A program made the position numbers and the translations under genes. From Lineus longissimus (Eukaryota; Nemertea; Pilidiophora; Heteronemertea; Lineidae), in contig NC_088322.1 in the NCBI RefSeq assembly GCF_910592395.1, forward strand, positions 14,937,431 to 15,001,430: a stretch of 64,000 nucleotides of DNA. Reading direction: 5' to 3'. How positions within the stretch are numbered: position 1 is the stretch's first letter; each line of letters starts with the position of its first letter. Shown here piece after piece: positions 3,072 through 64,000 of the stretch. The notes below the pieces were generated by a model. It was not told where the DNA came from and made no database searches. It saw nothing but the letters and a program-made list of their open reading frames with translations.

Positions 3072-3214
3072 TAAATATGATATATGTACTACATGTATAT
3101 AATACAACTATGGACATGGCAGCATCTCTGTCGCGTGCATACATCAAGGGGAAAACCTGCAATAACGTTAATAACCAATTTATCTGAGGATGGAACTTAG
3201 GATTGACGCTCTTG

Positions 3215-3806: not shown

Positions 3807-3838
3807 TTTATATAATATATATATATGTATATAAAACC

Positions 3839-38850: not shown

Positions 38851-39250
38851 GGACGTTTTTGAACTTTCGTTTAATGAGGATAAAGTTTAGCAGAAAGAAG
38901 GAATTTCACAACGATTCGTTAGTGTGTGAATGACGTTTTTGAACTTTCGTTCAATGAGGATAAAGTTTAGCGCAAAGAAGGAATTTCACAACAGTTTGTT
39001 AGTGTGTGAAGGACGTTTTGGAACTTTCGTTCAATGAGGATAAAGTTTAGCGGAAAGAAGGAATTTCACAACAATTCGTTAGTGTGTGAAGGACGTTTTT
39101 GAACTTTCGTTTAATGAGGATAAAGTTTAGCGGAAAGAAGGAATTTCACAACGATTCGTTAGTGTGTGAAGGACGTTTTGGAACTTTCGTTTAATGAGGA
39201 TAAAGTTTAGCGGAAAGAAGGAATTTCACAATAATTTGTTAGTGTGTGGC
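38851..39250. repeat. Five 80-bp tandem repeats upstream of the mucin-like gene
   Basis: GGACGTTTT(T/G)GAACTTTCGT begins units at 38851, 38931, 39011, 39091 and 39171, an exact 80-bp period. Each continues with AATGAGGATAAAGTTTAG, GAAGGAATTTCACAA and GTTAGTGTGTGAA. Units differ by a few substitutions. The array ends about 870 bp before the signal-peptide exon at 40120. Confidence 0.92.
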
Positions 39251-40119
39251 TATTATCATTTCGAAATCCGAGGATTTTGAAACAGGGCAATAACGTTTTG
39301 ATGTGACCTGGCTTAAACTGTTCTGCCAGCAAGACGTTTCACAGTTTCAATTATGCTTTAAAATTCTTGTTATCAATTTTAGTTCATTTACTCCTGCGAT
39401 TTGTCAGCGTAATTAAATTGTTAATTTAAGAACCCACCGTGAACAACCTTTTCTGGTATGAGGGGACATTGATTTTTAAAGAGTGGTCACCAAAAGGTCA
39501 GTGTATTTCCTGCATCTCACAGTACATCGGCATAGTTCCCTGACTTCGCATTTGGGTCGTTTCGCAATAACCATTATGACCATCTCGCTCCTGTCTAGTA
39601 TCCCCCTTGTATGAACATTCATGAACCTCCCTATCAATGATATGAACTGCCAACACATTTGGGGCCATACTATTACTCTCTGGCTTCTTCCGACTTGGTG
39701 ACCTGTTGTTTTTCTCATTTCGAGGGGAACTTCCACTGGACTTTTGACAAAAGAGATAAATCAACATCTAAAGCCACGCAAAATAACTTTTTTTTGTTGG
39801 GCGAAACTATGTAAGGGGTTTATGATCATACGATACGCGTTTGGGTAAGCACTGGATATCGCGCCTTTAGCGCATGTCCCGACAGGCCCGATGAGAGTTA
39901 AGCATCCTGCCAAATTTCGTTGTGGTTGTCGGGCCGATATCGTGAAAACATCTGGCAAATAGACGACTTGTCGCAGTGATTCCGCGCGACAGGACTGCGT
40001 CCGGAGTCTCAGTTTGGGCTGATATGATATAATGGATTACCGCAGTAACGATGTTCTGGAAACTGGTATATTCAATCTCATTTCAATTTTCATTTTCTAG
40101 AGCTGGCTGATCAGCAACA

Positions 40120-43100
40120 ATGGTTCGGATCGGCGTATTCCTGGTGGCGATTACCGTAATGGCCAACGGTAAGTGCCATTAAAGCTAATTCCAGTCCTAT
40201 TTTCGCACCTCAGAATGTCAAGTGCTATCGGCCGAAATTTCACAGTTTTGATGAAAAGCTTTAAATAGTTCAATGCCAGATTGATTATCGAAATCATATT
40301 GCAGAACGAAATATTTTTCGGTGCTGCCATCTGTCGCTTAAAAAGTAAACTGATTTCCAATGCACTCATATATCTTCGGCTTTACCTCTTACCTTTAGCA
40401 AACATTCTTAACCAGTCAACTACAAAAAGAAAGAAAGCACACTTACTAAAAGTAAGAAATTAATGAAGCATGGTTAATGACTTTCACCCCGAAACTAATT
40501 TGAAATGTGATAGTTTGTAGATTTTAACTTCAACTATGATGCTTTAACATTCATAAACACATTCTTCATCAACAGTAACGCTAACTTCTACCTCAATCGC
40601 GACGTCTTCAACTCCTTTGAGAAGCTCGTTATCTTCTTTATCTGTTTCACCGTCTTCAACAACAATTGTCACATCGCCGGCACAGACAATTACCTTGCAA
40701 GATGCACGAACTTTTACTTCGACGTTGTCGTTTACAAAACAATCAGATGTCTTATCAACAGTTACGCCCACTACAACATTCCCGGTGACATTTTCAACAC
40801 GATTGAGTAACTCATTATCTCTGTCACTGACTTCATCGACAAAGGCGACATCGTCGGCACAAACGAGTACATTTTCGTCAGTGATTCCAACTTTACCTCC
40901 AACTGTGTCGTCCACAACACCGTCAGGTTCCTCATCAACAGTTACGCTAACTTCCGCTCCAACTCTGGCGTATTCAGCACCATTGAGTACCTCGTCAGCT
41001 GCTTCAATAACTCTGTCCTCAACGCCATCGAGAAGTCCGTCGACTGCAACACCAACTTTATCTCCAACTTTCACGACTTCAACACAATCAAGTTACTCAT
41101 TGTATGTATCACCGACATTAACATTTATGTCAAGTTTCGTACCAGCATCGACTTCAAACTTGACGTCTTCAGCATCATCAAGTGGCTCGTTATCTGTATC
41201 GCCGACATTAGCAACAACCGTGACATCGTCGGTAAAAACCAGTGCCGCATCGACAGTTACACCAACTTCAACTTCTACTGTGACTTCGTCAATACCATCA
41301 GGTACTTCGTCCTCTGCAACACTCAGTTTAGCTTCTACATTAACGGCATCAGCACCACCAAGAAGCCTAACAACAGTCTTACCGACTTTAACACATACTT
41401 CGAGGTCTTTAACACCGTCAAGTACCTCGTCAACTGCTACACTAACTTTGACTGCATCTGTGACATCTTTACAAAAATTAAGTAGCTTGTTATCTCTATC
41501 ACCGTCTTCAACAAGAACCGTGACATTGACAGCTTTATCATCAACAGTAACCCAAACGTCTTCAACATCAGTGATTTCCTCGTCAACTGCTGCGCCCTCC
41601 TCAACAATGCAGTCCTCGACAAGCACTGGAGTATCAACCGCGCCCTCCTCAACGATGCAGTCCTTGACAAGCATTGGAGTATCAACCACTCCCTCCTCAA
41701 CAATGCAGACGTCGACAAGCATTGGAGTATCAACGACTCCCTCCTCATCGATGCAGTCCTCGACAAGGATTGTAGTATCAACCACTTCCTCCTCATCGAT
41801 GCAGTCCTCGATAAGCACGGGAGTATCAACCGCGCCCTCCTCAGCGATGCAGTCCTCGACAAGCACTGGAGTATCAACCACGCACTCCTCAACGATGCAG
41901 TCCTCGTCAAGCACTGCAGTATCAACCACTCCCTCCTCAACAATGCAGTCCTCTACAAGCACTGGAGTATCAATCGCGCCCTCCTCAACGATGCAGTCCT
42001 CGACAGGCACTGGAGTATCAACCGCGCCCTCCTCAACGATGGAGTCCTCGACAAGCACTGGAGTATCAACCGCGCCCTCCTCAACGATGCAGTCCTCGAC
42101 AAGCACGGGAGTATCAACCGCGCCCTCCTCAACGATGCAGTCCTCGTCAAGCACTGGAGTATCAACCACTCCCTCCTCAGCGATGCAGTCCTCGACAAGC
42201 ACTGGAGTATCAACCGCGCCCTCCTCAACGATGCAGTCCTCGTCAAGCACTGGAGTATCAACCACTCCCTCCTCAGCGATGCAGTCCTCGACAAGCACTG
42301 GAGTATCAACCGCGCTCTCCTCAACGATGCAGTCCTCGACAAGCACTGGAGTATCAACCACTCCCTCCTCAGCGATGCAGTCCTCGACAAGCACTGGAAA
42401 ATCAACCGCGTCCTCCTCATCGATGCAGTCCTTGACAAGCATTGGAGTATCATCCACTCCCTCCTCAGTGATGCACTCCTCGACAAGCACTGGAGTATCA
42501 ACCGTGCCCTCCTCAACGATGCAGTCCTCGTCAAGCACTGGAGTATCAACCACTCCCTCCTCAGCGATGCAGTCCTCGACAAGCACTGGAGTATCAACCG
42601 CGCCCTCCTCGATGATGCAGTCCTCGACAAGCACTGGAGTATCAACCGCGCCCTCCTCAACGATGCAGACCTCGACAACCACTGGAGTATCAACCGCGCC
42701 CTCTTCAATGATGCAGTCCTCGGCAAGCACTGGAGTATCAACCGCGCCCTCCTCAACGATGCAGTCCTCGTCAAGCACTGGAGTATCAACCACTCCCTCC
42801 TCAGCGATGCAGTCCTCGACAAGCACTGGAGTATCAACCGCGCTCTCCTCAACGATGCAGTCGTCGACAAGCACTGGAGTATCAACCACTCCCTCCTCAG
42901 CGATGCAGTCCTCGACAAGCACTGGAGTATCAACCGCGTCCTCCTCATCGATGCAGTCCTTGACAAGCATTGGAGTATCATCCACTCCCTCCTCAGTGAT
43001 GCACTCCTCGACAAGCACTGGAGTATCAACCGTGCCCTCCTCAACGATGCAGTCCTCGTCAAGCACTGGAGTATCAACCACTCCCTCCTTAGCGATGCAG

Positions 43101-46100
43101 TCCTCGACAAGCACTGGAGTATCAACCGCACCCTCCTCGATGATGCAGTCCTCGACAAGCACTGGAGTATCAACCGCGCCCTCCTCAACGATGCAGACCT
43201 CGACAAGCACTGGAGTATCAACCGCGCCCTCTTCAATGATGCAGTCCTCGACAAGCACTGGAGTATCAACCGCGCCCTCCTCAACGATGCAGTCCTCGAC
43301 AAGCACTGGAGTATCAACCGCGCCCTCCTCAACGATGCAGTCCTCGACAAGCGCTGGAGTATCAACCGCGCCCTCCTCAACGATGAAGGCCTCGACAAGC
43401 ACGGGAGTATCAACCGCGCCCTCCTCAACGATGCAGTCCTCGACAAGCACTGGAGTATCAACCGCGCCCTCCTCAACGATGCAGTCCTCGACAAGCACTG
43501 GAGTATCAACTGCGCCCTCCTCAACGATGCAGTCCTCTACAAGCACTGGAGTATCAATCGCGCCCTCCTCAATGATGCAGTCCTTGACAAGCACTGGAGT
43601 ATCAACCGCGCCCTCCTCAACGATGCAGACCTCGACAAGCACTGGAGTATCAACCGCGCCCTCCTCAACGATGCAGTCCTCGACAAGCACTGGAGTATCA
43701 ACCGTGCCCTCCTCAATGATGCAGTCCTCGACAAGCACTGGAGCATCAGCCGCGCCCTCCTCAACGATGCAGTCCTCGACAAGCACTGGAGTATCAGCCG
43801 CGCCCTCCTCAACGATGAAGACCTCGACAAGCACTGGAGTATCAACCGCGCCCTCCTCAACGATGCAGTCCTCTACAAGCACTGGAGTATCAATCGCGCC
43901 CTCCTCAACGATGCAGTCCTCGACAAGCACTGGAGTATCAACCGCGCCCTCCTCAACGATGCAGTCCTCGACAAGCACTGGAGTATCAACCGCGCCCTCC
44001 TCAACGATGCAGTCCTCGACAAGCAATGGGGTATCAACGACTCCCTCCTCATCGATGCAGTCCTCGACAAGGATTGTAGTATCAACCACTTCCTCCTCAT
44101 CGATGCAGTCCTCGATAAGCACGGGAGTATCAACCGCGCCCTCCTCAGCGATGCAGTCCTCGACAAGCACTGGAGTATCAACCGCGCACTCCTCAACGAT
44201 GCAGTCCTCGTCAAGCACTGGAGTATCAACCACTCCCTCCTCAACAATGCAGTCCTCTACAAGCACTGGAGTATCAATCGCGCCCTCCTCAACGATGCAG
44301 TCCTCGACAGGCACTGGAGTATCAACCGCGCCCTCCTCAACGATGGAGTCCTCGACAAGCACTGGAGTATCAACCGCGCCCTCCTCAACGATGGAGTCCT
44401 CGACAAGCACTGGAGTATCAACCGCGCCCTCCTCAACGATGCAGTCCTCGACAAGCACTGGAGTATCAACCGCGCCCTCCTCAACGATGCAGTCCTCGTC
44501 AAGCACTGGAGTATCAACCACTCCCTCCTCAGCGATGCAGTCCTCGACAAGCACTGGAGTATCAACCGCGCCCTCCTCAACGATGCAGTCCTCGTCAAGC
44601 ACTGGAGTATCAACCACTCCCTCCTCAGCGATGCAGTCCTCGACAAGCACTGGAGTATCAACCGCGCTCTCCTCAACGATGCAGTCCTCGACAAGCACTG
44701 GAGTATCAACCACTCCCTCCTCAGCGATGCAGTCCTCGACAAGCACTGGAGTATCAACCGCGTCCTCCTCATTGATGCAGTCCTTGACAAGCATTGGAGT
44801 ATCATCCACTCCCTCCTCAGTGATGCACTCCTCGACAAGCACTGGAGTATCAACCGTGCCCTCCTCAACGATGCAGTCCTCGTCAAGCACTGGAGTATCA
44901 ACCACTCCCTCCTCAGCGATGCAGTCCTCGACAAGCACTGGAGTATCAACCGCGCCCTCCTCGATGATGCAGTCCTCGACAAGCACTGGAGTATCAACCG
45001 CGCCCTCCTCAACGATGCAGACCTCGACAACCACTGGAGTATCAACCGCGCCCTCTTCAATGATACAGTCCTCGACAAGCACTGGAGTATCAACCGCGCC
45101 CTCCTCAACGATGCAGTCCTCGACAAGCACTGGAGTATCAACCGCGCCCTCTTCAACGATGCAGTCCTCGACAAGCGCTGGAGTATCAACCGCGCCCTCC
45201 TCAACGATGAAGGCCTCGACAAGCACGGGAGTATCAACCGCGCCCTCCTCAACGATGCAGTCCTCGACAAGCACTGGAGTATCAACCGCGCCCTCCTCAA
45301 CGATGCAGTCCTCGACAAGCACTGGAGTATCAACCGCGCCCTCCTCAACGATGCAGTCCTCTACAAGCACTGGAGTATCAATCGCGCCCTCCTCAATGAT
45401 GCAGTCCTTGACAAGCACTGGAGTATCAACCGCGCCCTCCTCAACGATGCAGACCTCGACAAGCACTGGAGTATCAACGGCGCCCTCCTCAACGATGCAG
45501 TCCTCGACAAGCACTGGAGTATCAACCGCGCCCTCCTCAACGATGCAGTCCTCGACAAGCACTGGAGTATCAACCACTCCCTCCTCAACGATGCAGTCCT
45601 CGACAAGCACTGGAGTATCAATCGCGCCCTCCTCAACGATGGAGTCCTCGACAAGCACTGGAGTATCAACCGTGCCCTCCTCAATGATGCAGTCCTCGAC
45701 AAGCACTGGTGCATCAGCCGCGCCCTCCTCAACGATGCAGTCCTCGACAAGCACTGGAGTATCAGCCGCGCCCTCCTCAACGATGCAGACCTCGACAAGC
45801 ACTGGAGTATCAACCGCGCCCTCCTCAACGATGCAGTCCTCTACAAGCACTGGAGTATTAATCGCGCCCTCCTCAACGATGCAGTCCTCGACAAGCACTG
45901 GAGTATCAACCGCGCCCTCCTCAACGATGCAGTCCTCGACAAGCACTGGAGTATCAACCGCGCCCTCCTCAACGATGCAGTCCTCGACAAGCAATGGGGT
46001 ATCAACGACTCCCTCCTCATCGATGCAGTCCTCGACAAGGATTGTAGTATCAACCACTTCCTCCTCATCGATGCAGTCTTCGATAAGCACGGGAGTATCA

Positions 46101-49100
46101 ACCGCGCCCTCCTCAGCGATGCAGTCCTCGACAAGCACTGGAGTATCAACCGCGCACTCCTCAACGATGCAGTCCTCGTCAAGCACTGGAGTATCAACCA
46201 CTCCCTCCTCAACAATGCAGTCCTCTACAAGCACTGGAGTATCAATCGCGCCCTCCTCAACGATGCAGTCCTCGACAAGCAATGGAGTATCAACCGCGTC
46301 CTCCTCAACGATGGAGTCCTCGACAAGCACTGGAGTATCAACCGCGCCCTCCTCAACGATGGAGTCCTCGACAAGCACTGGAGTATCAACCGCGCCCTCC
46401 TCAATGATGCAGTCCTCGACAAGCACGGGAGTATCAACCGCGCCCTCCTCAACGATGCAGTCCTCGACAAGCACTGGAGAATCAACCGCGCCCTCCTCAA
46501 CGATGCAGTCCTCGACAAGCACTGGATTATCAACCGCGCCCTCCTCAACGATGCAGTCCTCTACAAGCACTGGAGTATTAATCGCGCCCTCCTCAACGAT
46601 GCAGTCCTCGACAAACACTGGAGTATCAACCACGCCCTCCTCAACGATGCAGTCCGCGACAAGCACTGGAGTATCAACCGCACACTCCTCAACGATGCAG
46701 TCCTCGACAAGCATTGGAGTTTCAACCACCCCCTCCTCAACAATGCAGACCTCGACAAGCATTGGGGTATCAACGACTCCCTCCTCATCGATGCAGTCCT
46801 CGACAAGGATTGGAGTATCAACCACTTCCTCCTCATCGATGCAGTCCTTGACAAGCATTGGAGTATCATCCACTCCCTCCTCAACGATGCAGTCCTCGAC
46901 AAGCACTGGAGTATCAACCGTGCCCTCCTTAACGATGCAGTCCTCGTCAAGCACTGGAGTATCAACCACTCCCTCCTCAGCGATGCAGTCCTCGACAAGC
47001 ACTGGAGTATCAACCGCGCCCTCCTCAACAATGCAGTCCTCGACAAGCACTGGAGTATCAACCGCGCCCTCCTCAATGATGCAGTCCTCTACAAGCACTG
47101 GAGTATCAATCGCGCCATCCTCAACGATGCAGTCCTCGACAAGCACTGGAGTATCAACCGCGCCCTCCTCAACGATGCAGTCCTCGACAAACACTGGAGT
47201 ATCAACCACGCCCTCCTCAACGATGCAGTCCGCGACAAGCACTGGAGTATCAACCGCGCACTCCTCAACGATGCAGTCCTCGACAAGCATTGGAGTTTCA
47301 ACCACTCCATCCTCAACAATGCAGACCTCGACAAGCATTGGGGTATCAACGACTCCCTCCTCATCGATGCAGTCCTCGACAAGGATTGGAGTATTAACCA
47401 CTTCCTCCTCATCGATGCAGTCCTCGACAAGCACTGGAGTATCAACCGCACCCTCCTCAACAATGCAGTCCTCGACAAGCACTGGAGTATCAACCGTGCC
47501 CTCCTCAACGATGCAGTCCTCTACAAGCACTGGAGTATCAATCGCGCCCTCCTCAACGATGCAGTCCTCGACAAGCACTGGAGTATCAATCGCGCCCTCC
47601 TCAACGATGCAGACCTCGACAAGCACTGGAGTATCAACCGCGCTCTCCTCAACGATGCAGTCCTCAACAAGCAATGGAGTATCAACCACGCCCTCCTCAA
47701 CGATGCAGTCTGCGACAAGCACTGGAGTATCAACCGCGCACTCCTCAACCATGCAGTCCTCGATAAGCATTGGAGTTTCAACCACTCCATCCTCAACAAT
47801 GCAGACCTCGACAAGCACTGGAGTATCAACCGTGCCCTCCTCAACGATGCAGTCCTCTACAAGCACTGGAGTATCAATCGCGCCCTCCTCAACGATGCAG
47901 TCCTCGACAAGCACTGGAGTATCAATCGCGCCCTCCTCAACGATGCAGACCTCGACAAGCACTGGAGTATCAACCGTGCCCTCCTCAACGATGCAGTCCT
48001 CTACAAGCACTGGAGTATCAATCGCGCCCTCCTCAACGATGCAGTCCTCGACAAGCACTGGAGTATCAATCGCGCCCTCCTCAACGATGCAGACCTCGAC
48101 AAGCACTGGAGTATCAACCGCGCTCTCCTCAACGATGCAGTCCTCAACAAGCACTGGAGTATCAACCGCGCCCTCCTCAACGATGCAGTCCTCGACAAGC
48201 ACTGGAGTATCAACCGCGCCCTCCTCAACGATGCAGTCCTCGACGAGCACTGGAGTATCAACCGCGCCCTCTTCAACGATGCAGGCCTCGACGAGCACGG
48301 GAGTATCAACCGCGCCCTCCTCAACGATGGAGTCCTCGACAAGCACTGGAGTATCAACCGCGCCCTCCTCAACGATGCAGTCTTCGACAAGCACTGAAGT
48401 ATCAACCGCGCCCTCCTCAATGATGCAGTCCTCAACAAGCACTGGAGTATCAACCGCGCCCTCCTCAACGATGCAGTCCTCGACGAGCACTGGAGTATCA
48501 ACCGCGCCCTCTTCAACGATGCAGGCCTCGACGAGCACGGGAGTATCAACCGCGCCCTCTTCAACGATGCAGTCCTCGACAAGCACTGTAGTATCAACCA
48601 CGCCCTCCTCAGCGATGCAGTCCTTGACAAGCACTGAAGTATCAACCGCGCCCTCCTCAACGATGCAGTCCTCAACAAGCACTGTAGTATCAACCACGCC
48701 CTCCTCAGCGATGCAGTCCTCGACGAGCACTGGAGTATCAACCGCGCCCTCTTCAACGATGCAGGCCTCGACAAGCACTGTAGTATCAACCACGCCCTCC
48801 TCAGCGATGCAGTCCTCGACGAGCACTGGAGTATCAACCGCGCCCTCTTCAACGATGCAGGCCTCGACGAGCACGGGAGTATCAACCGCGCCCTCTTCAA
48901 CGATGCAGTCCTCGACAAGCACTGTAGTATCAACCACGCCCTCCTCAGCGATGCAGTCCTCGACAAGCACTGGAGTATCAATCGCGCCCTCCTCAACGAT
49001 GCAGTCCTCGTCAAGCACTGGAGTATCAACCACTCCCTCCTCAGCGATGCAGTCCTCGACAAGCTTTGGTGTATCAACCGCGCCCTCCTCAACAATGCAG

Positions 49101-52100
49101 TCCTCGGCAAGCACTGGAGTATCAACCACGCTCTCCTCAACGATGCAGTCCTTGCCAAGCATTGGAATATCAACCACTCCCTCCTCAACAATGCAAACGT
49201 TGACAAGCATTGGAGTATCAACCACTCCCTCCTCAATGATGCAGAGCTTGACAAGCATTGGGGCATCAACCAGTCCCTCCTCAGCGATGCAGTCCTCGAC
49301 AAGCACTGGAGTATCAACCGCGCCCTCCACAACGATGCAGTCCTCGACAAGCACTGGAGTATCAACCGCGCCCTCCTCAACGATGCAGTCCTCGACAAGC
49401 ACTGGAGTATCAACCGCGCCCTCCTCAACGATGCAGTCCTCGACAAGCACTGGAGTATCAACCGCGCCCTCCTCAACGATGCAGTCCTCGACAAGCACTG
49501 AAGTATCAACAGCGCCCTCCTCAACGATGCAGTCCTCGTCAAGCACTGGAGTATCAACCGCGCCCTCCTCAACGATGCAGTCCTCGACAAGCACTGGAGT
49601 ATCAACCGCGCCCTCCTCAACGATGCAGACCTCGACAAGCACTGGAGTATCAACCTCGCCCTCCTCAACGATGCAGTCCTCGACAAGCACTGGAGTATCA
49701 AACGCGCCCTCCTCAACGATGCAGTCCTCGACAAGCACTGTAGTATCAACCACGCCCTCCTCAGCGATGCAGTCCTCGACAAGCACTGGAGTATCAATCG
49801 CGCCCTCCTCAACGATGCAGTCCTCGTCAAGCACTGGAGTATCAACCATTCCCTCCTCAGCGATGCAGTCCTCGACAAGCTTTGGTGTATCAACCGCGCC
49901 CTCCTCAACAATGCAGTCCTCGGCAAGCACTGGAGTATCAACCACGCTCTCCTCAACGATGCAGTCCTTGCCAAGCATTGGAATATCAACCACTCCCTCC
50001 TCAACAATGCAAACGTTGACAAGCATTGGAGTATCAACCACTCCCTCCTCAATGATGCAGAGCTTGACAAGCATTGGGGCATCAACCAGTCCCTCCTCAG
50101 CGATGCAGTCCTCGACAAGCACTGGAGTATCAACCGCGCCCTCCACAACGATGCAGTCCTCGACAAGCACTGGAGTATCAACCGCGCCCTCCTCAACGAT
50201 GCAGACCTCGACAAGCACTGGAGTATCAACCGCGCCCTCCTCAACGATGCAGTCCTCGACTAGCACTGGAGTATCAACCGCGCCCTCCTCATCGATGCAG
50301 TCCTCGACAAGCACTGAAGTATCAACAGCGCCCTCCTCAACGATGCAGTCCTCGTCAAGCACTGGAGTATCAACCGCGCCCTCCTCAACGATGCAGTCCT
50401 CGACAAGCACTGGAGTATCAACCGCGCCCTCCTCAACGATGCAGACCTCGACAAGCACTGGAGTATCAACCTCGCCCTCCTCAACGATGCAGTCCTCGAA
50501 AAGCACTGGAGTATCAAACGCGCCCTCCTCAACGATGCAGTCCTCGACAAGCACTGGAGTATCAACTGCGCCCTCCTCAATGATGCAGTCCTCGACAAGC
50601 ACTGGAGTATCAACCGCGCCCTCCTCAGCGATGCAGTCCTCGACAAGCACTGGAGTATCAACCGCGCCCTCCTCAACGATGCAGTCCTCGACAAGCACTG
50701 GAGTATCAACCGCGCCCTCCTCAATGATGCAGTCCTCGACAACCACTGGAGTATCAACCGTGACCTCCTCATCGATGCAGTCCTCGACAAGGATTGGAGT
50801 ATCAACCACTTCCTCCTCATCGATGCAGTCCTTGACAAGCATTGGAGTACAATCCACTGCCTCCTCAGCGATGCAGTCCTCGACAAGCACTGGAGTATCA
50901 ACCGCGCCCTCCTCAACAATGCAGTCCTCGACAAGCACTGGAGTATCAACCGTGCCCTCCTCAACGATGCAGTCCTCTACAAGCACTGGAGTATCAATCG
51001 CGCCCTCCTCAACGATGCAGTCCTCGACAAGCACTGGAGTATCAACCACGCCCTCCTTAACGATGCAGTCCTCGACAAGCACTGGAGTATCAACCGCACC
51101 CTCCTCAATGATGCAGTCCTCGACAAGCACTGGAGTATCAACCTCGCCTTCCTCAACGATGCAGTCCTCGACGAGCACTGGAGTATCAACCGCGCCCTCT
51201 TCAACGATGCAGGCCTTGACGAGCACGGGAGTATCAACCGCACCCTCCTCAACGATGCAGTCCTCGACAAGCACTGGAGTATCAAACGCGCCCTCCTCAA
51301 CAATGCAGTCCTCGACAAGCACTGATGTATCAGCCGCGCCCTCCTCAACGATGCAGTCCTCTACAAGCACTGGAGTATCAATCGCGCCCTCCTCAACGAT
51401 GCAGTCCTCGACAGGCACTGGAGTATCAACCGCGCCCTCCTCAACAATGCAGTCCTCGACAAACACTGGAGTATCAACCACGCCCTCCTCAATGATGCAG
51501 TCCTCGACAAGCACTGGAGTATCAACCACGCCCTCCTCAACGATGCAGTCCTTCACAAGCATTGGAGTATCAACCACTCGCTCCTCAACAATGCAGTCCT
51601 TGACAAGCATTGGAGTATCAACCACTCCCTCCTCAGCAATGCAGACATCGACAAGCATTGGAGTATCAACCACTCCCTCCTCAACGATGCAGACCTTGAC
51701 AAGCATTGGGGCATCAACCAGTCCCTCCTCAGCGATGCAGTCCTTGACAAGTACCGGAGTATCAACCGCGCCCTCCACAACGATGCAGTCCTCGACAAGC
51801 ACTGGAGTATCAACCGCGCCCTCCTCAACGATGCAGTCCTCGACAAGCACTGGAGTATCAACCGCGCCCTCCTCAACGATGCAGTCCTCGACAAGCACTG
51901 GAGTATCAACCGCGCCCTCCTCAACGATGCAGTCCTCGACAAGCACTGGACTATCAACAGCGCCCTCCTCAACGATGCAGTCCTCGACAAGCACTGGAGT
52001 ATCAACCGCGCCCTCCTCAACGATGCAGTCCTCGACAAGCACTGGAGTATCAACCGCGCCCTCCTCAACGATGCAGTCCTCGACAAGCACTGGAGTATCA

Positions 52101-55100
52101 ACCGCGCCCTCCTCAACGATGCAGTCCTCGACAAGCACTGGAGTATCAACCACGCCCTCCTCAACGATGCAGTCCTCGACAAGCACTGGAGTATCAACTG
52201 CGCCCTCCTCAACGATGCAGTCCTTTACAAGCACTGGAGTATCAACCTCGCCCTCCTCACCGATGCAGTCCTCTACAAGCACTGGAGTATCAACCGCGCC
52301 CTCCTCAACGATGCAGTCCTCTACAAGCACTGGAGTATCAACCACTCCCTCCTCACCGATGAAGTCCTCTACAAGCACTGGAGAATCAACCACTCCCTCT
52401 TCACCGATGCAGTCCTCGACAAGCATTGGAGTATCAACCGTGCCCTCCTCAACGATGCAGTCCTCGACGAGCACTGGAGTATCAACCGCGCCCTCCTCAA
52501 CGATGCAGTCCTCGACAAGCACTGGAGTATCAACCGTGCCCTCCTCAACGATGCAGTCCTCGACGAGCACTGGAGTATCAACCGCGCCCTCTTCAACGAT
52601 GCAGGCCTCGACGAGCACGGGAGTATCAACCGTGCCCTCCTCAAAGATGCAGTCCTCGACAAGCACTGGAGTATCAACCAATCCCTCCTCAACAATGCAG
52701 TCCTTGACAAGCATTGGAGTATCAACCACTCCCTCCTCAGCAATGCAGACGTCGACAAGCATTGGAGTATCAACCACTCCCTCCTCAACGATGCAGACCT
52801 TGACAAGCATTGGGGCATCAACCAGTCCCTCCTCAGCGATGCAGTCCTCGACAAGCACCGGAGTATCAACCGCGCCCTCCACAACGATGCAGTCCTCGAC
52901 AAGCACTGGAGTATCAACCGCGCCCTCCTCAACAAAGCAGTCCTCGACAAGCACTGGAGTATCAACCGCACCCTCCTCAACGATGCAGTCCTCGACAAGC
53001 ACTGGAGTATCAACCGCGCCCTCCTCAACGATGCAGTCCTCGACAAGCACTGGACTATCAACAGCGCCCTCCTCAACGATGCAGTCCTCGACAAGCACTG
53101 GAGTATCAATCGCGCCCTCCTCAACGATGCAGTCCTCGACAAGCACTGGAGTATCAACCACGCCCTCCTTAACGATGCAGTCCTCGACAAGCACTGGAGT
53201 ATCAACCGCACCCTCCTCAACGATGCAGTCCTCGACAAGCACTGGAGTATCAACCGCGCCCTCCTCAACGATGCAGTCCTCGACGAGCACTGGAGTATCA
53301 ACCGCGCCCTCTTCAACGATGCAGGCCTTGACGAGCACGGGAGTATCAACCGCACCCTCCTCAACGATGCAGTCCTCGACGAGCACTGGAGTATCAACCG
53401 CGCCCTCCTCAACAATGCAGTCCTCGACAAGCACTGAAGTATCAGCCGCGCCCTCCTCAACGATGCAGTCCTTTACAAGCACTGGAGTATCAATCGCGCC
53501 CTCCTCAACGATGCAGTCCTCGACAGGCACTGGAGTATCAACCGCGCCCTCCTCAACAATGCAGTCCTCGACAAACACTGGAGTATCAACCACGCCCTCC
53601 TCAATGATGCAGTCCTCGACAAGCACTGGAGTATCAACCACGCCCTCCTCAACGATGCAGTCCTTCACAAGCATTGGAGTATCAACCACTCCCTCCTCAA
53701 CAATGCAGTCCTTGACAAGCATTGGAGTATCAACCACTCCCTCCTCAGCAATGCAGACATCGACAAGCATTGGAGTATCAACCACTCCCTCCTCAACGAT
53801 GCAGACCTTGACAAGCATTGGGGCATCAACCAGTCCCTCCTCAGCGATGCAGTCCTCGACAAGTACCGGAGTATCAACCGCGCCCTCCACAATGATGCAG
53901 TCCTCGACAAGCACTGGAGTATCAACCGCGCCCTCATCAACGATGCAGTCCTCGACAAGCACTGGAGTATCAACCGCGCCCTCCTCAACGATGCAGTCCT
54001 CGACAAGCACTGGACTATCAACAGCGCCCTCCTCAACGATGCAGTCCTCGACAAGCACTGGTGTATCAACCACGCCCTCATCAACGATGCAGTCCTCGAC
54101 AAGCACTGTAGTATCAACCACGCCCTCCTCAGCGATGCAGTCCTCGACGAGCACTGGAGTATCAACCGCGCCCTCTTCAACGATGCAGGCCTCGACGAGC
54201 ACGGGAGTATCAACCGCGCCCTCTTCAACGATGCAGTCCTCGACAAGCACTGTAGTATCAACCACGCCCTCCTCAGCGATGCAGTCCTCGACAAGCACTG
54301 GAGTATCAATCGCGCCCTCCTCAACGATGCAGTCCTCGTCAAGCACTGGAGTATCAACCACTCCCTCCTCAGCGATGCAGTCCTCGACAAGCTTTGGTGT
54401 ATCAACCGCGCCCTCCTCAACAATGCAGTCCTCGGCAAGCACTGGAGTATCAACCACGCTCTCCTCAACGATGCAGTCCTTGCCAAGCATTGGAATATCA
54501 ACCACTCCCTCCTCAACAATGCAAACGTTGACAAGCATTGGAGTATCAACCACTCCCTCCTCAATGATGCAGAGCTTGACAAGCATTGGGGCATCAACCA
54601 GTCCCTCCTCAGCGATGCAGTCCTCGACAAGCACTGGAGTATCAACCGCGCCCTCCTCAACGATGCAGTCCTCGACAAGCACTGGAGTATCAACCGCGCC
54701 CTCCTCAACGATGCAGTCCTCGACAAGCACTGGAGTATCAACCGCGCCCTCCTCAACGATGCAGTCCTCGACAAGCACTGGAGTATCAACCGCGCCCTCC
54801 TCAACGATGCAGTCCTCGACAAGCACTGAAGTATCAACAGCGCCCTCCTCAACGATGCAGTCCTCGTCAAGCACTGGAGTATCAACCGCGCCCTCCTCAA
54901 CGATGCAGTCCTCGACAAGCACTGGAGTATCAACCGCGCCCTCCACAACGATGCAGACCTCGACAAGCACTGGAGTATCAACCTCGCCCTCCTCAACGAT
55001 GCAGTCCTCGACAAGCACTGGAGTATCAAACGCGCCCTCCTCAACGATGCAGTCCTCGACAAGCACTGTAGTATCAACCACGCCCTCCTCAGCGATGCAG

Positions 55101-58100
55101 TCCTCGACAAGCACTGGAGTATCAATCGCGCCCTCCTCAACGATGCAGTCCTCGTCAAGCACTGGAGTATCAACCACTCCCTCCTCAGCGATGCAGTCCT
55201 CGACAAGCTTTGGTGTATCAACCGCGCCCTCCTCAACAATGCAGTCCTCGGCAAGCACTGGAGTATCAACCACGCTCTCCTCAACGATGCAGTCCTTGCC
55301 AAGCATTGGAATATCAACCACTCCCTCCTCAACAATGCAAACGTTGACAAGCATTGGAGTATCAACCACTCCCTCCTCAATGATGCAGAGCTTGACAAGC
55401 ATTGGGGCATCAACCAGTCCCTCCTCAGCGATGCAGTCCTCGACAAGCACTGGAGTATCAACCGCGCCCTCCACAACGATGCAGTCCTCGACAAGCACTG
55501 GAGTATCAACCGCGCCCTCCTCAACGATGCAGACCTCGACAAGCACTGGAGTATCAACCGCGCCCTCCTCAACGATGCAGTCCTCGACTAGCACTGGAGT
55601 ATCAACCGCGCCCTCCTCATCGATGCAGTCCTCGACAAGCACTGAAGTATCAACAGCGCCCTCCTCAACGATGCAGTCCTCGTCAAGCACTGGAGTATCA
55701 ACCGCGCCCTCCTCAACGATGCAGTCCTCGACAAGCACTGGAGTATCAACCGCGCCCTCCTCAACGATGCAGACCTCGACAAGCACTGGAGTATCAACCT
55801 CGCCCTCCTCAACGATGCAGTCCTCGAAAAGCACTGGAGTATTAAACGCGCCCTCCTCAACGATGCAGTCCTCGACAAGCACTGGAGTATCAACTGCGCC
55901 CTCCTCAATGATGCAGTCCTCGACAAGCACTGGAGTATCAACCGCGCCCTCCTCAGCGATGCAGTCCTCGACAAGCACTGGAGTATCAACCGCGCCCTCC
56001 TCAACGATGCAGTCCTCGACAAGCACTGGAGTATCAACCGCGCCCTCCTCAATGATGCAGTCCTCGACAACCACTGGAGTATCAACCGTGACCTCCTCAT
56101 CGATGCAGTCCTCGACAAGGATTGGAGTATCAACCACTTCCTCCTCATCGATGCAGTCCTTGACAAGCATTGGAGTACAATCCACTGCCTCCTCAGCGAT
56201 GCAGTCCTCGACAAGCACTGGAGTATCAACCGCGCCCTCCTCAACAATGCAGTCCTCGACAAGCACTGGAGTATCAACCGTGCCCTCCTCAACGATGCAG
56301 TCCTCTACAAGCACTGGAGTATCAATCGCGCCCTCCTCAACGATGCAGTCCTCGACAAGCACTGGAGTATCAACCACGCCCTCCTTAACGATGCAGTCCT
56401 CGACAAGCACTGGAGTATCAACCGCACCCTCCTCAATGATGCAGTCCTCGACAAGCACTGGAGTATCAACCTCGCCTTCCTCAACGATGCAGTCCTCGAC
56501 GAGCACTGGAGTATCAACCGCGCCCTCTTCAACGATGCAGGCCTTGACGAGCACGGGAGTATCAACCGCACCCTCCTCAACGATGCAGTCCTCGACAAGC
56601 ACTGGAGTATCAAACGCGCCCTCCTCAACAATGCAGTCCTCGACAAGCACTGATGTATCAGCCGCGCCCTCCTCAACGATGCAGTCCTCTACAAGCACTG
56701 GAGTATCAATCGCGCCCTCCTCAACGATGCAGTCCTCGACAGGCACTGGAGTATCAACCGCGCCCTCCTCAACAATGCAGTCCTCGACAAACACTGGAGT
56801 ATCAACCACGCCCTCCTCAATGATGCAGTCCTCGACAAGCACTGGAGTATCAACCACGCCCTCCTCAACGATGCAGTCCTTCACAAGCATTGGAGTATCA
56901 ACCACTCGCTCCTCAACAATGCAGTCCTTGACAAGCATTGGAGTATCAACCACTCCCTCCTCAGCAATGCAGACATCGACAAGCATTGGAGTATCAACCA
57001 CTCCCTCCTCAACGATGCAGACCTTGACAAGCATTGGGGCATCAACCAGTCCCTCCTCAGCGATGCAGTCCTTGACAAGTACCGGAGTATCAACCGCGCC
57101 CTCCACAACGATGCAGTCCTCGACAAGCACTGGAGTATCAACCGCGCCCTCCTCAACGATGCAGTCCTCGACAAGCACTGGAGTATCAACCGCGCCCTCC
57201 TCAACGATGCAGTCCTCGACAAGCACTGGAGTATCAACCGCGCCCTCCTCAACGATGCAGTCCTCGACAAGCACTGGACTATCAACAGCGCCCTCCTCAA
57301 CGATGCAGTCCTCGACAAGCACTGGAGTATCAACCGCGCCCTCCTCAACGATGCAGTCCTCGACAAGCACTGGAGTATCAACCGCGCCCTCCTCAACGAT
57401 GCAGTCCTCGACAAGCACTGGAGTATCAACCGCGCCCTCCTCAACGATGCAGTCCTCGACAAGCACTGGAGTATCAACCACGCCCTCCTCAACGATGCAG
57501 TCCTCGACAAGCACTGGAGTATCAACCGCGCCCTCCTCAACGATGCAGTCCTTTACAAGCACTGGAGTATCAACCTCGCCCTCCTCACCGATGCAGTCCT
57601 CTACAAGCACTGGAGTATCAACCGCGCCCTCCTCAACGATGCAGTCCTCTACAAGCACTGGAGTATCAACCACTCCCTCCTCACCGATGAAGTCCTCTAC
57701 AAGCACTGGAGAATCAACCACTCCCTCTTCACCGATGCAGTCCTCGACAAGCATTGGAGTATCAACCGTGCCCTCCTCAACGATGCAGTCCTCGACGAGC
57801 ACTGGAGTATCAACCGCGCCCTCCTCAACGATGCAGTCCTCGACAAGCACTGGAGTATCAACCGTGCCCTCCTCAACGATGCAGTCCTCGACGAGCACTG
57901 GAGTATCAACCGCGCCCTCTTCAACGATGCAGGCCTCGACGAGCACGGGAGTATCAACCGTGCCCTCCTCAAAGATGCAGTCCTCGACAAGCACTGGAGT
58001 ATCAACCAATCCCTCCTCAACAATGCAGTCCTTGACAAGCATTGGAGTATCAACCACTCCCTCCTCAGCAATGCAGACGTCGACAAGCATTGGAGTATCA

Positions 58101-61100
58101 ACCACTCCCTCCTCAACGATGCAGACCTTGACAAGCATTGGGGCATCAACCAGTCCCTCCTCAGCGATGCAGTCCTCGACAAGCACCGGAGTATCAACCG
58201 CGCCCTCCACAACGATGCAGTCCTCGACAAGCACTGGAGTATCAACCGCGCCCTCCTCAACAAAGCAGTCCTCGACAAGCACTGGAGTATCAACCGCACC
58301 CTCCTCAACGATGCAGTCCTCGACAAGCACTGGAGTATCAAGCGCGCCCTCCTCAACGATGCAGTCCTCGACAAGCACTGGACTATCAACAGCGCCCTCC
58401 TCAACGATGCAGTCCTCGACAAGCACTGGAGTATCAATCGCGCCCTCCTCAACGATGCAGTCCTCGACAAGCACTGGAGTATCAACCACGCCCTCCTTAA
58501 CGATGCAGTCCTCGACAAGCACTGGAGTATCAACCGCACCCTCCTCAACGATGCAGTCCTCGACAAGCACTGGAGTATCAACCGCGCCCTCCTCAACGAT
58601 GCAGTCCTCGACGAGCACTGGAGTATCAACCGCGCCCTCTTCAACGATGCAGGCCTTGACGAGCACGGGAGTATCAACCGCACCCTCCTCAACGATGCAG
58701 TCCTCGACGAGCACTGGAGTATCAACCGCGCCCTCCTCAACAATGCAGTCCTCGACAAGCACTGAAGTATCAGCCGCGCCCTCCTCAACGATGCAGTCCT
58801 TTACAAGCACTGGAGTATCAATCGCGCCCTCCTCAACGATGCAGTCCTCGACAGGCACTGGAGTATCAACCGCGCCCTCCTCAACAATGCAGTCCTCGAC
58901 AAACACTGGAGTATCAACCACGCCCTCCTCAATGATGCAGTCCTCGACAAGCACTGGAGTATCAACCACGCCCTCCTCAACGATGCAGTCCTTCACAAGC
59001 ATTGGAGTATCAACCACTCCCTCCTCAACAATGCAGTCCTTGACAAGCATTGGAGTATCAACCACTCCCTCCTCAGCAATGCAGACATCGACAAGCATTG
59101 GAGTATCAACCACTCCCTCCTCAACGATGCAGACCTTGACAAGCATTGGGGCATCAACCAGTCCCTCCTCAGCGATGCAGTCCTCGACAAGTACCGGAGT
59201 ATCAACCGCGCCCTCCACAACGATGCAGTCCTCGACAAGCACTGGAGTATCAACCGCGCCCTCATCAACGATGCAGTCCTCGACAAGCACTGGAGTATCA
59301 ACCGCGCCCTCCTCAACGATGCAGTCCTCGACAAGCACTGGACTATCAACAGCGCCCTCCTCAACGATGCAGTCCTCGACAAGCACTGGTGTATCAACCA
59401 CGCCCTCATCAACGATGCAGTCCTCGACAAGCACTGGAGTATCAACCGCGCCCTCCTCAACGATGCAGTCCTCGACAAGCACTGGAGTATCAACCGCACT
59501 CTCCTCAACGATGCAGACCTCGACAAGCACTGGAGTATCAATCGCGCCCTCCTCAACGATGCAGTCCTCGACAAGCACTGGAGTATCAACCACGCCCTCC
59601 TCAACGATGCAGTCCTCGACAAGCACTGGAGTATCAACCGCGCCCTCCTCAACGATGCAGTCCTTTACAAGCACTGGAGTATCAACCTCGCCCTCCTCAC
59701 CGATGCAGTCCTCTACAAGCACTGGAGTATCAACCGCGCCCTCCTCAACGATGCAGTCCTCTACAAGCACTGGAGTATCAACCACTCCCTCCTCACCGAT
59801 GAAGTCCTCTACAAGCACTGGAGAATCAACCACTCCCTCCTCACCGATGCAGTCCTCGACAAGCATTGGGGTATCGACCACTCCCTCCTCAACGATGCAG
59901 TCCTCTACAAGCACTGGAGTATCAACCTCGCCCTCCTCACCGATGCAGTCCTCTACAAGCACTGGAGTATCAATCGCGCCCTCCTCAACGATGCAGTCCT
60001 CGACAAGCACTGGAGTATCAACCGTGCCCTCCTCAACGATGCAGTCCTCGACGAGCACTGGAGTATCAACCGCGCCCTCCTCAACGATGCAGTCCTCGAC
60101 AAGCACTGGAGTATCAACCGTGCCCTCCTCAACGATGCAGTCCTCGACGAGCACTGGAGTATCAACCGCGCCCTCTTCAACGATGCAGGCCTCGACGAGC
60201 ACGGGAGTATCAACCGTGCCCTCCTCAAAGATGCAGTCCTCGACAAGCACTGGAGTATCAACCAATCCCTCCTCAACAATGCAGTCCTTGACAAGCATTG
60301 GAGTATCAACCACTCCTTCCTCAGCAATGCAGACGTCGACAAGCATTGGAGTATCAACCACTCCCTCCTCAACGATGCAGACCTTGACAAGCATTGGGGC
60401 ATCAACCAGTCCCTCAGCGATGCAGTCCTCGACAAGCACCGGAGTATCAACCGCGCCCTCCACAACGATGCAGTCCTCGACAAGCACTGGAGTATCAACC
60501 ACGCCCTCCTCAACGAAGCAGTCTTCGACAAGCACTGGAGTATCAACCGCACCCTCCTCAACGATGCAGTCCTCGACAAGCACTGGAGTATCAACCGCGC
60601 CCTCCTCAACGATGCAGTCCTCGAAAAGCACTGGACTATCAACAGCGCCCTCCTCAACGATGCAGTCCTCGACAAGCACTGGAGTATCAACCGCGCCCTC
60701 ATCAACGATGCAGTCCTCGACAAGCACTGGAGTATCAACCGCGCCCTCCTCAACGATGCAGTCCTCGACAAGCACTGGAGTATCAACCGCGCTCTCCTCA
60801 ACGATGCAGACCTCGACAAGCACTGGAGTATCAATCGCGCCCTCCTCAACAATGCCGTCCTCGACAAGCACTGGAGTATCAACCACGCCCTCCTCAACGA
60901 TGCAGTCCTCTACAAGCACTGGAGTATCAACCGCGCCCTCCTCAACGATGCAGTCCTCTACAAGCACTGGAGTATCAACCACTCCCTCCTCACCGATGCA
61001 GTCCTCAAAAAGCATTGGGGTATCGACCACTCCCTCCTCAACGATGCAGTCCTCTACAAGCACTGTAGTATCAACCTCGCCCTCCTCACCGATGCAGTCC

Positions 61101-64000
61101 TCGACAAGCACTGGAGTATCAACCGCGCCCTCCTCAACGATGCAGTCCTCGACAAGCACTGGAGTATCAACCGTGCCCTCCTCAACGATGCAGTTCTCGA
61201 CGAGCACTGGAGTATCAACCGCGCCTTCCTCAACGATGCAGTCCTCGACAATCACTGGAGTATCAACCGCGCCCTCCTCAACGATGCAGACCTCGACAAG
61301 CACTGGAGTATCAACTGCGCCCTCCTCAACAATGCAGTCCTCGACAAGCACTGGAGTATCAACCGCACCCTCCTCAACGATGCAGTCCTCGACAAGCACT
61401 GGAGTATCAACCGCGCCCTCCTCAACGATGCAGACCTCGACAAGCACTGGAGTATCAACCGCGCCCTCCTCAACAATGCAGTCCTCGACAAGCACTGGAG
61501 TATCAACCGCACCCTCCTCAACGATGCAGTCCTCTACAAGCACTGGAGTATCAACCTCGCCCTCCTCACCGATGCAGTCCTCTACAAGCACTGGAGTATC
61601 AACCGCGCCCTCCTCAACGATGCAGTCATCTACAAGCACTGGAGTATCAACCACTCCCTCCTCACCGATGAAGTCCTCTACAAGCACTGGAGAATCAACC
61701 ACTCCCTCCTCACCGATGCAGTCCTCGACAAGCATTGGGGTATCGACCACTCCCTCCTCAACGATGCAGTCCTCTACAAGCACTGGAGTATCAACCTTGC
61801 CCTCCTCACCGATGCAGTCCTCTACAAGCACTGGAGTATCAACCGCGCCCTCCTCAACGATGCAGTCCTCGACAAGCACTGGAGTATCAACCGCGCCCTC
61901 CTCAACGATGCAGTCCTCGACAAGCATTGGAGTATCCACCACTCCCTCCTCAACGATGCAGTCCACGACAAGCATTAAAGTATCGACCACCCCCTCCTCA
62001 ACGATGCAGTCCTCTACAAGCATTGGAGTATCAACAACTCCCTCCTCATCGATGCAGTCCTCTACAAGCATTGGAGTATCAACCACTCCCTCCTCAGCGA
62101 TGCAGTCTTCGACAAGCATTGGAGTATCAACCACTCCCTCCTCATCGATGCAGACCTCGACAAGCATTGGAGTATCAACCACTCCCTCCTCGACAATGCA
62201 GTCCACGACAAGCACTGGAGTATCAACCAGTCCCTCCTCATCAATTGAGACCTCGACAAGCATTGGAGTATCCACCACTCCCTCCTCATCGATGCAGTCC
62301 TCGACAAGCATTGGGGTATCAACCACTCCCTTCTCATCGATGCAGTCCTCGACAAGCATTGGGGTATCAACCACTCCCTCCTCAACGATACAGTCCTCGA
62401 CAAACATTGGAGTATCAACCACTCCCTCCTCATCGATGCAGTCCTCGACAAGCACTGGAGTATCAACCACACCCTCCTCATCGATGCAGCCCTCGACAAG
62501 CATTGGGGTATCGACCACTCCCTCCTCATCGATGCAGTCCTCGACAAGCATTGGGGTATCAACCACTCCCTCCTCATCGATGCAGTCCTCGACAAGCACT
62601 GGAGTATCTACCACACCCTCCTCATCGATGCAGCCCTCGACAAGCATTGGGGTATCAACCACTCCCTCCTCATCGATGCAGTCCTCGACAAGCATTGGGG
62701 TATCAACCACTCCCTCCTCATCGATGCAGTCCTCGACAAGCATTGGGGTATCGACCACTCCCTCCTCATCAATGCAGTCCTCGACAAGCATTGGGGTATC
62801 AACCACACCCTCCTCATCGATGCAGCCCTCGACAAGCATTGGGGTATCAACCACTCCCTCCTCATCGATGCAGTCCTCGACAAGCATTGGGGTATCAACC
62901 ACTCCCTCCTCATCGATGCAGTCCTCGACAAGCATTGGAGTATCAACCACTCCCTCCTCATCGATGCAGTCCTCGACAAGCACTGGAGTATCAACCACAC
63001 CCTCCTCATCGATGCAGTCCTCGACAAGCATTGGAGTATCAATCACTCCCTCCTCATCGATGCAGTCCTCGACAAGCATTGGAGTATCAATCACTCCCTC
63101 CTCATCGATGCAGTCCTCGACAAGCATTGGGGTATCAACCACACTCTCCTCATCGATGCAGCCCTCGACAAGCACTGGAGTATCAACCACACCCTCCTCA
63201 TCGATGCAGCCCTCGACAAGCATTGGGGTATCGACCACTCCCTCCTCATCGATGCAGTCCTCGACAAGCATTGGGGTATCAACCACTCCCTCCTCATCGA
63301 TGCAGTCCTCGACAAGCACTGGAGTATCAACCACACCCTCCTCATCGATGCAGTCCTCGACAAGCATTGGAGTATCAATCACTCCCTCCTCATCGATGCA
63401 GTCCTCGACAAGCATTGGGGTATCAACCACACTCTCCTCATCGATGCAGCCCTCGACAAGCAGTGGAGTATCAACCACACCCTCCTCATCGATGCAGCCC
63501 TCGACAAGCATTGGGGTATCGACCACTCCCTCCTCATCGATGCAGTCCTCGACAAGCATTGGGGTATCAACCACTCCCTCCTCATCGATGCAGTCCTCGA
63601 CAAGCACTGGAGTATCAACCACACCCTCCTCATCGATGCAGTCCTCGACAAGCATTGGAGTATCAATCACTCCCTCTTCATCGATGCAGTCCTCGACAAG
63701 CATTGGAGTATCAATCACTCCCTCCTCATCGATGCAGTCCTCGACAAGCATTGGGGTATCAACCACGCCCTCCTCAACGATGCAGTCCTTGACAAGCATT
63801 GGAGTATCAACCACTCCCTCCTCAACAATGCAGACGTCGACAAGCATTGGAGTATCAACCACTCCCTCCTCAACGATGCAGACCTTGACAAGCATTGTGG
63901 CATCAACCAGTCCCTCCTCAGCGATGCAGTCCTCGACAAGCACTGGAGTATCAACCGCGCCTTCCACAACGATGCAATCCTCGACAAGCACTGGAGTATC
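40120..64000 (+). CDS. Giant secreted mucin-like Ser/Thr-rich repeat protein (3' end beyond window)
   Basis: Exon 1 (40120-40168) encodes MVRIGVFLVAITVMAN, a typical signal peptide, and ends in phase 1 at G|GTAAGT. The acceptor at 40574-40575 (TTCTTCATCAACAG) opens exon 2 at 40576 in the matching phase, giving NVTLTSTSIATSSTPLRSS. An in-frame TAA at 40554-40556 lies just before it, inside the intron. From 40576 I found no stop to the window edge: about 7,808 codons in one exon. Residues 17 to about 350 are non-repetitive Ser/Thr/Pro-rich sequence. From about 41583 the protein is 16-residue repeats, consensus STAPSSTMQSSTSTGV, with 10 of 16 positions Ser or Thr, one Pro and no Cys. This is the composition of an O-glycosylated mucin PTS domain. 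No family assignment is possible without the C-terminus. The antisense frame is rejected below. A matrix, mucus or coat protein is plausible but inferred. Confidence 0.85.
40169..40575 (+). other. Intron 1 of the mucin-like gene
   Basis: A 407-bp intron between the signal-peptide exon and the giant repeat exon, with donor GTAAGT and acceptor CATCAACAG preceded by a short pyrimidine-rich stretch. Both borders are phase 1, so the join recreates a Val codon (G+TA). Confidence 0.75.
41583..64000. repeat. Coding tandem array of 48-bp units, about 466 copies in window
   Basis: The consensus plus-strand unit is TCAACCGCGCCCTCCTCAAC followed by GATGCAGTCCTCGACAAGCA and CTGGAGTA. Unit starts at 41634 and 63999 differ by 22,365 bp, which is 466 x 48 minus 3. 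The only length change I find is loss of 3 nt near 60413. Variation is by substitution. The main classes are ACCGCGCCC (T-A-P) or ACCACTCCC (T-T-P), then ACG, GCG or TCG before ATG (T/A/S). A distinct class with TCATCGATGCAG(T/C)CC and AGCATTGGGGTA dominates 62.1-63.8 kb. The array continues past the window. Confidence 0.95.
48771..59426. repeat. 5,328-bp (111-unit) tandem duplication within the 48-bp array
   Basis: Copy A is about 48771-54098 and copy B about 54099-59426. Marker variants recur at exactly +5,328: CTCGACTAGCACTGG at 50255 and 55583, the AAGCATTGGAGTACAATCCA variant at 50836 and 56164, and GCACTGATGTATCAGCC at 51320 and 56648. The copies differ at scattered single bases, for example CTCCACAAC against CTCCTCAAC at 49325 and 54653. 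Homology stops at both outer borders near 48771 and 59426. Confidence 0.85.

What the first reader, a model, noticed from the sequence alone, without database searches (positions are those of the whole stretch)
40120..64000. Giant mucin-like gene with a single exon of at least 23.4 kb
A signal-peptide exon (MVRIGVFLVAITVMAN) joins in matching phase 1 to an exon open from 40576 to the window edge. It encodes more than 7,800 residues of Ser/Thr-rich protein, over 90% of it a 16-residue repeat with 62% Ser/Thr and no Cys. A conventional ORF search limited to ORFs closed within the window would miss it and report the antisense frame instead. That the gene exists follows from frame, splice phase, composition and signal peptide. 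Its role (mucus, coat, adhesive or skeletal matrix) is unknown.
Basis: partly seen in the sequence, partly recalled or inferred. Interest (0 to 1): 0.9.

Follow-up and report, generated by a model that had tools for sequence, protein, structure and literature searches.

The report
Giant mucin gene, probably ribbon worm
The window holds the start of a very large mucin gene, most likely from the bootlace worm or a close relative, whose sugar-carrying stalk appears to be coded by one exon of at least 23 kb; it is a big new example of a well-known kind of surface protein.

Summary
A 49-nt signal-peptide exon (40120-40168) joins in phase 1 to an exon open from 40576 to the window edge: 7,824 codons, no stop. 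An array of 466 units of 48 bp makes up 95.7% of the exon-2 protein; Ser+Thr is 59.9% of the array (62.5% in the consensus), with no Cys. The only length change among the units is a 3-bp in-frame deletion. Substitutions that would create a plus-frame stop are almost absent (1 seen, 28 expected). The antisense frame is also open, but its stop avoidance is weaker and two of its four stop-creating changes are shared with the plus frame.

A protein search found one match: 'mucin-17-like' of Lineus longissimus (Nemertea), 544 residues. It starts inside the same 16-residue repeat, best like the window's last 2.3 kb. It then gives what the window lacks: a low-Ser/Thr region with a GSAIV motif, eight Cys, a transmembrane stretch and a 97-residue tail. 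Best reading: a giant membrane-tethered mucin of a ribbon worm, truncated in public annotation. Neither the physical link to that C-terminus nor the species is proven, and a SEA domain was not confirmed. Giant repeat exons are normal for mucins, so novelty is modest.

The parts
40120..40168 (+). Exon 1, coding part: signal peptide MVRIGVFLVAITVMAN, donor G|GTAAGT, ends in phase 1
   Evidence: sequence, phase. Scan of both strands of the window for ATG + hydrophobic stretch + strong donor: 1 hit on plus (this one), 5 on minus; of the 6 it is the only one in phase 1. No SignalP available
40169..40575 (+). Intron 1 (407 bp, GT-AG)
   Evidence: junction inferred from sequence, no transcript data; 40576 is the first of 9 possible in-frame acceptors
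40576..64000 (+). Exon 2, open to the window edge (at least 23,425 bp)
40576..41591 (+). 5' part of exon 2: Ser/Thr-rich (55.0%), a degenerate older repeat of about 20 residues / 60 bp
   Evidence: Composition; lags of 20 and 40 aa (z 4.1 each; also 44 aa, z 3.8) and of 60, 120, 180 bp (45-47% identity)
41592..64000 (+). Main array, 466 units of 48 bp and a 44-nt tail, consensus APSSTMQSSTSTGVST, running off the edge
48792..59495 (+). Recent tandem duplication inside the array, spacing 5,328 bp (111 units); the copies differ at 11 of 5,376 bases, no stop made
60408..60452 (+). Unit with the single in-frame 3-bp deletion (SPSAMQ...)
61700..63750 (+). 3' subfamily of units (Thr at 1, Ile at 12: TPSS[ST]MQSSTSIGVST), closest to the repeats of L. 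longissimus P0002
   Evidence: segment 61700-64000: T1 in 89%, I12 in 74% of units; the last units revert to the main type
41093..64000 (-). Antisense frame, open but judged a by-product of repeat composition

Best explanation
This is the 5' end of a giant membrane-tethered mucin gene of a ribbon worm, most likely Lineus longissimus. Exon 1 gives the signal peptide. One exon of at least 23.4 kb gives the extracellular stalk: about 7,800 residues, 59.7% Ser/Thr, so about 4,660 possible O-glycan sites, which would hold the chain extended. Beyond the window the array should end in a juxtamembrane region, a Cys-rich region, one transmembrane helix and a cytoplasmic tail, as in P0002. Shown: frame, array, composition, stop avoidance and the same repeat in P0002. 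Inferred: splicing, glycosylation, physical link to P0002, species, and a surface-coat (glycocalyx) role, possibly with self-cleavage at GSAIV and shedding.
For: Frame, signal exon and phase. Stop avoidance in the plus frame: 1 against 28.1 expected, 0 of 2,000 permutations as low; by type 1 of 7 against 4.9 expected, p 0.0025. The one indel is in frame. The sole database match among 7,986 scored candidates is 'mucin-17-like [Lineus longissimus]', E 5.2e-47, 77% identity over 30% of the query. P0002 starts at the Met of a repeat unit and shows no signal peptide, so it is probably a truncated model. Six of its 12 units occur letter for letter in the window, and its first 9 units fit the window's 3' end best: mean distance 2.39 residues per unit there, 3.32-3.61 in the five segments before. 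P0002 has a transmembrane stretch (mean hydropathy 3.06 from 428), 8 Cys between 364 and 415, GSAIV at 292, 5 N-glycan motifs and a 97-residue tail. Its contig, 16,292,257 bp, fits chromosome 15 of L. longissimus, 16.29 Mb (PMC8593623, Table 2; part 1 of 2 of the text seen).
Against: P0002 is not shown to lie on the same DNA; it could be a paralogue or the gene of a sister species. A rolling-stone-like exon of the window found nothing among 61 candidates in the database that holds an L. longissimus protein, though the query was one exon with flanking intron and the length filter could hide a longer protein. Pfam gave no SEA or EGF match for P0002 or its pieces up to E 10; it gave only weak matches well below cut-off (NicO 0.026 and Stevor 3.3 on the TM region, DUF1622 0.032, TILa 1.6). 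PDB gave no match for the SEA-like piece and only a sodium channel beta-2 at E 1.6-1.7 for whole P0002. The single-sequence model is unusable there (pLDDT under 50). Unit variation shows no synonymous excess (225 against 208 expected, p 0.38), so residue-level selection is not seen. Pfam found no family in the first 657 residues of exon 2.
Confidence: 0.75

Rival explanations
1. A giant secreted mucin or structural/adhesive Ser/Thr-rich protein with no membrane anchor; P0002 is a paralogue that shares the repeat.
For: The window itself holds no transmembrane stretch (maximum 19-residue hydropathy 1.0) and no C-terminus. Ribbon worms make mucus; MUC2, MUC5A and MUC5B are named in the proboscis expression section of a paper on another nemertean (PMC9132205, passages).
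Against: No Cys in 7,807 residues, although interrupting Cys domains are common in gel-forming mucins (recalled). The only relative found has a transmembrane stretch and the same unit.
Confidence: 0.17
2. The coding strand is the minus strand: an acidic repeat protein VDTPVLVEDCIVEEGA with one Cys per unit.
For: Minus frame open for 22.9 kb; stop-creating changes 1 against 16 expected, p 0.02 by count and 0.07 by type.
Against: That frame has only 4 stop-creating changes, two of them shared with the plus frame. It ends in a stop inside the Ser/Thr-rich 5' part (41093), while the plus frame runs through it to a phase-matched signal exon. An independently annotated protein uses the plus frame.
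Confidence: 0.03
3. Non-coding satellite that happens to be open in two frames.
For: Unit substitutions fall almost evenly on the three codon positions (228, 199, 233 in 187 distinct units).
Against: Stop avoidance, only one indel and that in frame, a signal exon in phase, and a named protein with the same repeat.
Confidence: 0.02

Closest known systems
P0002, 'mucin-17-like' of Lineus longissimus (name as given by the source, 544 aa)
   Same: Same 16-residue unit; units TPSSTMQSSTSIGVST and TPSSSMQSSTSIGVST occur letter for letter in the window
   Different: Holds only about 12 units and no signal peptide; carries the TM stretch and tail that the window lacks; DNA link not shown
Human MUC4
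   Same: Tethered mucin; N-terminal signal, then 16-residue repeats, 145-395 copies (PMC6780288, passages); longest allele 27,843 bp (PMC13345508, passages)
   Different: MUC4 has NIDO, AMOP and VWD domains; Pfam found none of these in P0002
Human MUC17 / MUC3A / MUC12 group
   Same: Repeat exon, then juxtamembrane domains, TM and tail (domain order recalled); longest predicted MUC12 23,080 aa
   Different: Repeat lengths differ (recalled); SEA and EGF not confirmed by profile in P0002
Human MUC1 / MUC16
   Same: Tethered; MUC1 has repeats, SEA, TM and tail; the largest MUC16 exon is estimated at over 21 kb (PMC5338267, one passage)
   Different: MUC16 has 16 SEA modules, and its largest exon is said not to encode the tandem-repeat region; here at most one SEA-like region, and the giant exon is the array

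Membership tests
Mucin (PTS-domain glycoprotein) | Signal peptide | tested here: met
   MVRIGVFLVAITVMAN in a phase-matched exon; by hydropathy and inspection, no SignalP; splicing not tested
Mucin (PTS-domain glycoprotein) | Long tandem-repeat domain rich in Ser/Thr with Pro | tested here: met
   466 units, S+T 59.9%, Pro 6.1%
Mucin (PTS-domain glycoprotein) | Repeat domain in one large exon | tested here: met
   Open 23.4 kb to the edge; transcript not available
Mucin (PTS-domain glycoprotein) | Dense O-glycosylation | not testable with these tools
   No prediction tool or peptide data
Membrane-tethered mucin (MUC17/MUC3/MUC12-like) | Transmembrane helix and cytoplasmic tail | tested here: inconclusive
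   Present in P0002 (421-447, tail 448-544), not in the window; link inferred
Membrane-tethered mucin (MUC17/MUC3/MUC12-like) | SEA domain with G-S cleavage motif | tested here: inconclusive
   GSAIV at 292 of P0002 (that this resembles the SEA cleavage motif is recalled); no SEA match in Pfam up to E 10, no PDB match for the piece; model unusable
Membrane-tethered mucin (MUC17/MUC3/MUC12-like) | EGF-like domains | tested here: inconclusive
   8 Cys at 364-415 of P0002, no Pfam EGF match up to E 10
Gel-forming mucin (MUC2/5AC/5B-like) | VWD / Cys-knot / Cys-rich modules | tested here: inconclusive
   No Cys in the 7,807 residues held; the C-terminus is outside the window

The most novel reading that the evidence does not exclude
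The exon goes on well beyond 23.4 kb and ends in the P0002 C-terminus, so a ribbon worm carries a tethered mucin among the longest proteins of any animal. Self-cleavage at GSAIV would shed stalks of about two micrometres into the worm's slime, a tethered mucin doing the work of a gel mucin without cysteine cross-links.
Probability: 0.15. Interest if true: 0.6.

Novelty: new member of a known kind. Interest (0 to 1): 0.35.

Why it matters
If the reading is right, it is a giant tethered-mucin gene in Nemertea, a phylum that defends itself with toxic epidermal secretions (PMC9132205, abstract as listed), and the protein found in the public database is only the last part of such a gene. In the held library no paper has all three of the words nemerte-, mucin and tandem repeat (0 papers). 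Its 16-residue, several-hundred-copy array parallels MUC4, a useful case for convergent growth of mucin arrays.

Tried and rejected
Whole-genome look-up of the repeat (genome search, own genome) did not complete: each time the same request. Exact repeat pattern in viral contigs and genome contigs: 0 matches each. A protein search with residues 300-800 of the 7,807-aa protein found nothing among 656 scored candidates, probably because only proteins of similar length are candidates; a 657-aa query then found P0002. The rolling-stone exon used to learn the species found nothing among 61 candidates. Rfam: 0 matches; tRNA: 0. PDB search with the 657-aa piece gave one weak match (cytochrome bc1 subunit, E 0.17), taken as chance. 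The bacterial-type promoter scan at 39800-40200 found 0 and is irrelevant here. Structure model of P0002: mean pLDDT 41.3, not used for a fold search. A codon-position test and a synonymous-excess test gave no strand signal. Paper searches that gave nothing used here: mucin with tandem repeat and amphioxus, an early wrong guess at the organism, 'mucin-like' with 'giant exon' (0 papers), transmembrane mucin with SEA domain and invertebrate, mucin evolution with SEA domain. Antisense coding and non-coding satellite were considered and rejected for the reasons given under rivals.

Full report
What is there. The plus strand carries a 49-nt coding exon at 40120-40168 (MVRIGVFLVAITVMAN), a GT-AG intron, and an exon that starts at 40576 and stays open to base 64000. 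Joined, they read 7,824 codons without a stop. A scan of both strands of the window for an ATG, a hydrophobic stretch and a strong donor within 110 nt gave one plus-strand hit, this one, and five on the minus strand; of the six only this one is in phase 1. The acceptor itself is not proven: nine AG sites between 40200 and 41100 would keep phase and frame, and 40576 is the first.

The array. From 41592 the exon is a head-to-tail array of 48-bp units: 465 full units, one with a 3-bp deletion, and a 44-nt tail. The consensus is APSSTMQSSTSTGVST. Ser+Thr is 59.9%, Pro 6.1%, Cys 0. There are 187 distinct units among the 465 full ones. Larger blocks have been copied: bases 48792-54167 and 54120-59495 differ at 11 of 5,376 positions, nine of them changing the residue, none making a stop. 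Upstream, 40576-41591 is a worn repeat of about 20 residues with 55.0% Ser+Thr. So two generations of repeat lie side by side. Worn array edges are also described for about half of the human mucins studied in PMC13345508 (preprint, passages).

Is it coding, and on which strand? Among 660 base differences from the consensus in the distinct units, those that would make a plus-frame stop number 1, against 28.1 expected from the substitution spectrum (0 of 2,000 permutations as low). That one cannot be a real stop, since the frame holds none in the array; its codon must carry a second change. By type it is 1 of 7 against 4.9 expected, p 0.0025. The antisense frame, also open, gives 1 against 16 expected, p 0.02 by count and 0.07 by type. 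It has only four such changes, two of them shared with the plus frame. The other four frames hold 14, 57, 107 and 945 stops in the array. Against selection on the residues themselves: synonymous changes are not in excess (225 against 208, p 0.38), and changes are spread almost evenly over codon positions. A chain that must stay open but may drift in sequence fits a mucin stalk (inference).

In the 5' part the plus frame has no stop, and 0 of 20,000 base shuffles were open. Two other frames have only 1 and 2 stops there, so composition helps too.

The relative. One protein matched among 7,986 scored candidates: 'mucin-17-like' of Lineus longissimus, 544 aa, E 5.2e-47, 77% identity over 30% of the query. 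It begins at the Met of a repeat unit, shows no signal peptide, and so looks like the truncated end of a longer gene (inference). Of its 12 units, 6 occur letter for letter in the window (two unit types). Its first 9 units are closest to the window's units at 61.7-64 kb: mean 2.39 differences per unit, against 3.32-3.61 in the five segments before. After about 196 residues of repeat and a Thr/Pro stretch come a low-Ser/Thr region of about 137 residues with GSAIV, eight Cys, a transmembrane stretch and a 97-residue tail. This order resembles MUC17-type tethered mucins (recalled). A SEA or EGF domain could not be confirmed: Pfam gave neither up to E 10, only weak matches below cut-off; PDB gave nothing for the SEA-like piece; and the single-sequence model was too poor.

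Species. The contig of P0002 is 16,292,257 bp, which fits chromosome 15 of the L. longissimus assembly, 16.29 Mb, GC 42.0%; chromosome 17, at 16.30 Mb, is the next nearest (PMC8593623). The first 40 kb of the window have a G+C of 0.39-0.50 per 2-kb block, which does not exclude it. The window's own genome could not be searched. One test speaks weakly against L. longissimus: a rolling-stone-like exon found no match in the same database. I therefore say ribbon worm, probably L. longissimus.

How it works. The likely course is: secretion by the signal peptide; O-glycans on some of about 4,660 Ser/Thr positions (59.7% of 7,807 residues) stiffening the chain to roughly two micrometres (length per residue recalled); anchoring by the C-terminal helix; possibly cleavage at GSAIV and shedding into mucus. 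Only the sequence features are shown; the rest is inferred.

What is new. Giant repeat exons are a standard trait of mucins. PMC13345508 states that canonical mucins share a large exon of tandem repeats, that MUC12 reaches a predicted 23,080 residues and MUC4 27,843 bp. The largest MUC16 exon is estimated at over 21 kb, though that source says it does not encode the tandem-repeat region (PMC5338267). MUC4 also uses 16-residue units, 145-395 copies (PMC6780288). This gene is a new member of a known kind. Library searches for Lineus longissimus with mucin (3 papers) and nemerte- with mucin and tandem repeat (0 papers) turned up no description of it. I saw passages of two of those three papers; the third I saw only in the listing, so a mention there is not excluded.

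Noticed in passing
window 26245-30487, minus strand: Astacin metalloprotease exon (PF01400, E 1e-34) and exons with ShK domains (PF01549), one with a long Thr-rich stretch. M12A (astacin-type) proteinase transcripts are named in a ribbon worm secretion study, PMC7460313 (passage).
   Followed up: partly
window 8774-10334, minus; 12176-12529, plus; 15414-16004, plus: Exons of a PDE12-like phosphodiesterase, an elongation factor Ts and a rolling-stone-like membrane protein, marking an animal genome (the Exo_endo_phos match at 8774-9220 is just below its cut-off).
   Followed up: partly
window 2360-3748, 3836-4230, 38842-39248: Tandem arrays of 68-bp, 56-bp and 80-bp units; the last lies about 0.9 kb upstream of the mucin signal exon.
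   Followed up: no
window 37303-37983, minus: ORF that looks like the end of a retroelement reverse transcriptase (by eye); no Pfam match.
   Followed up: no
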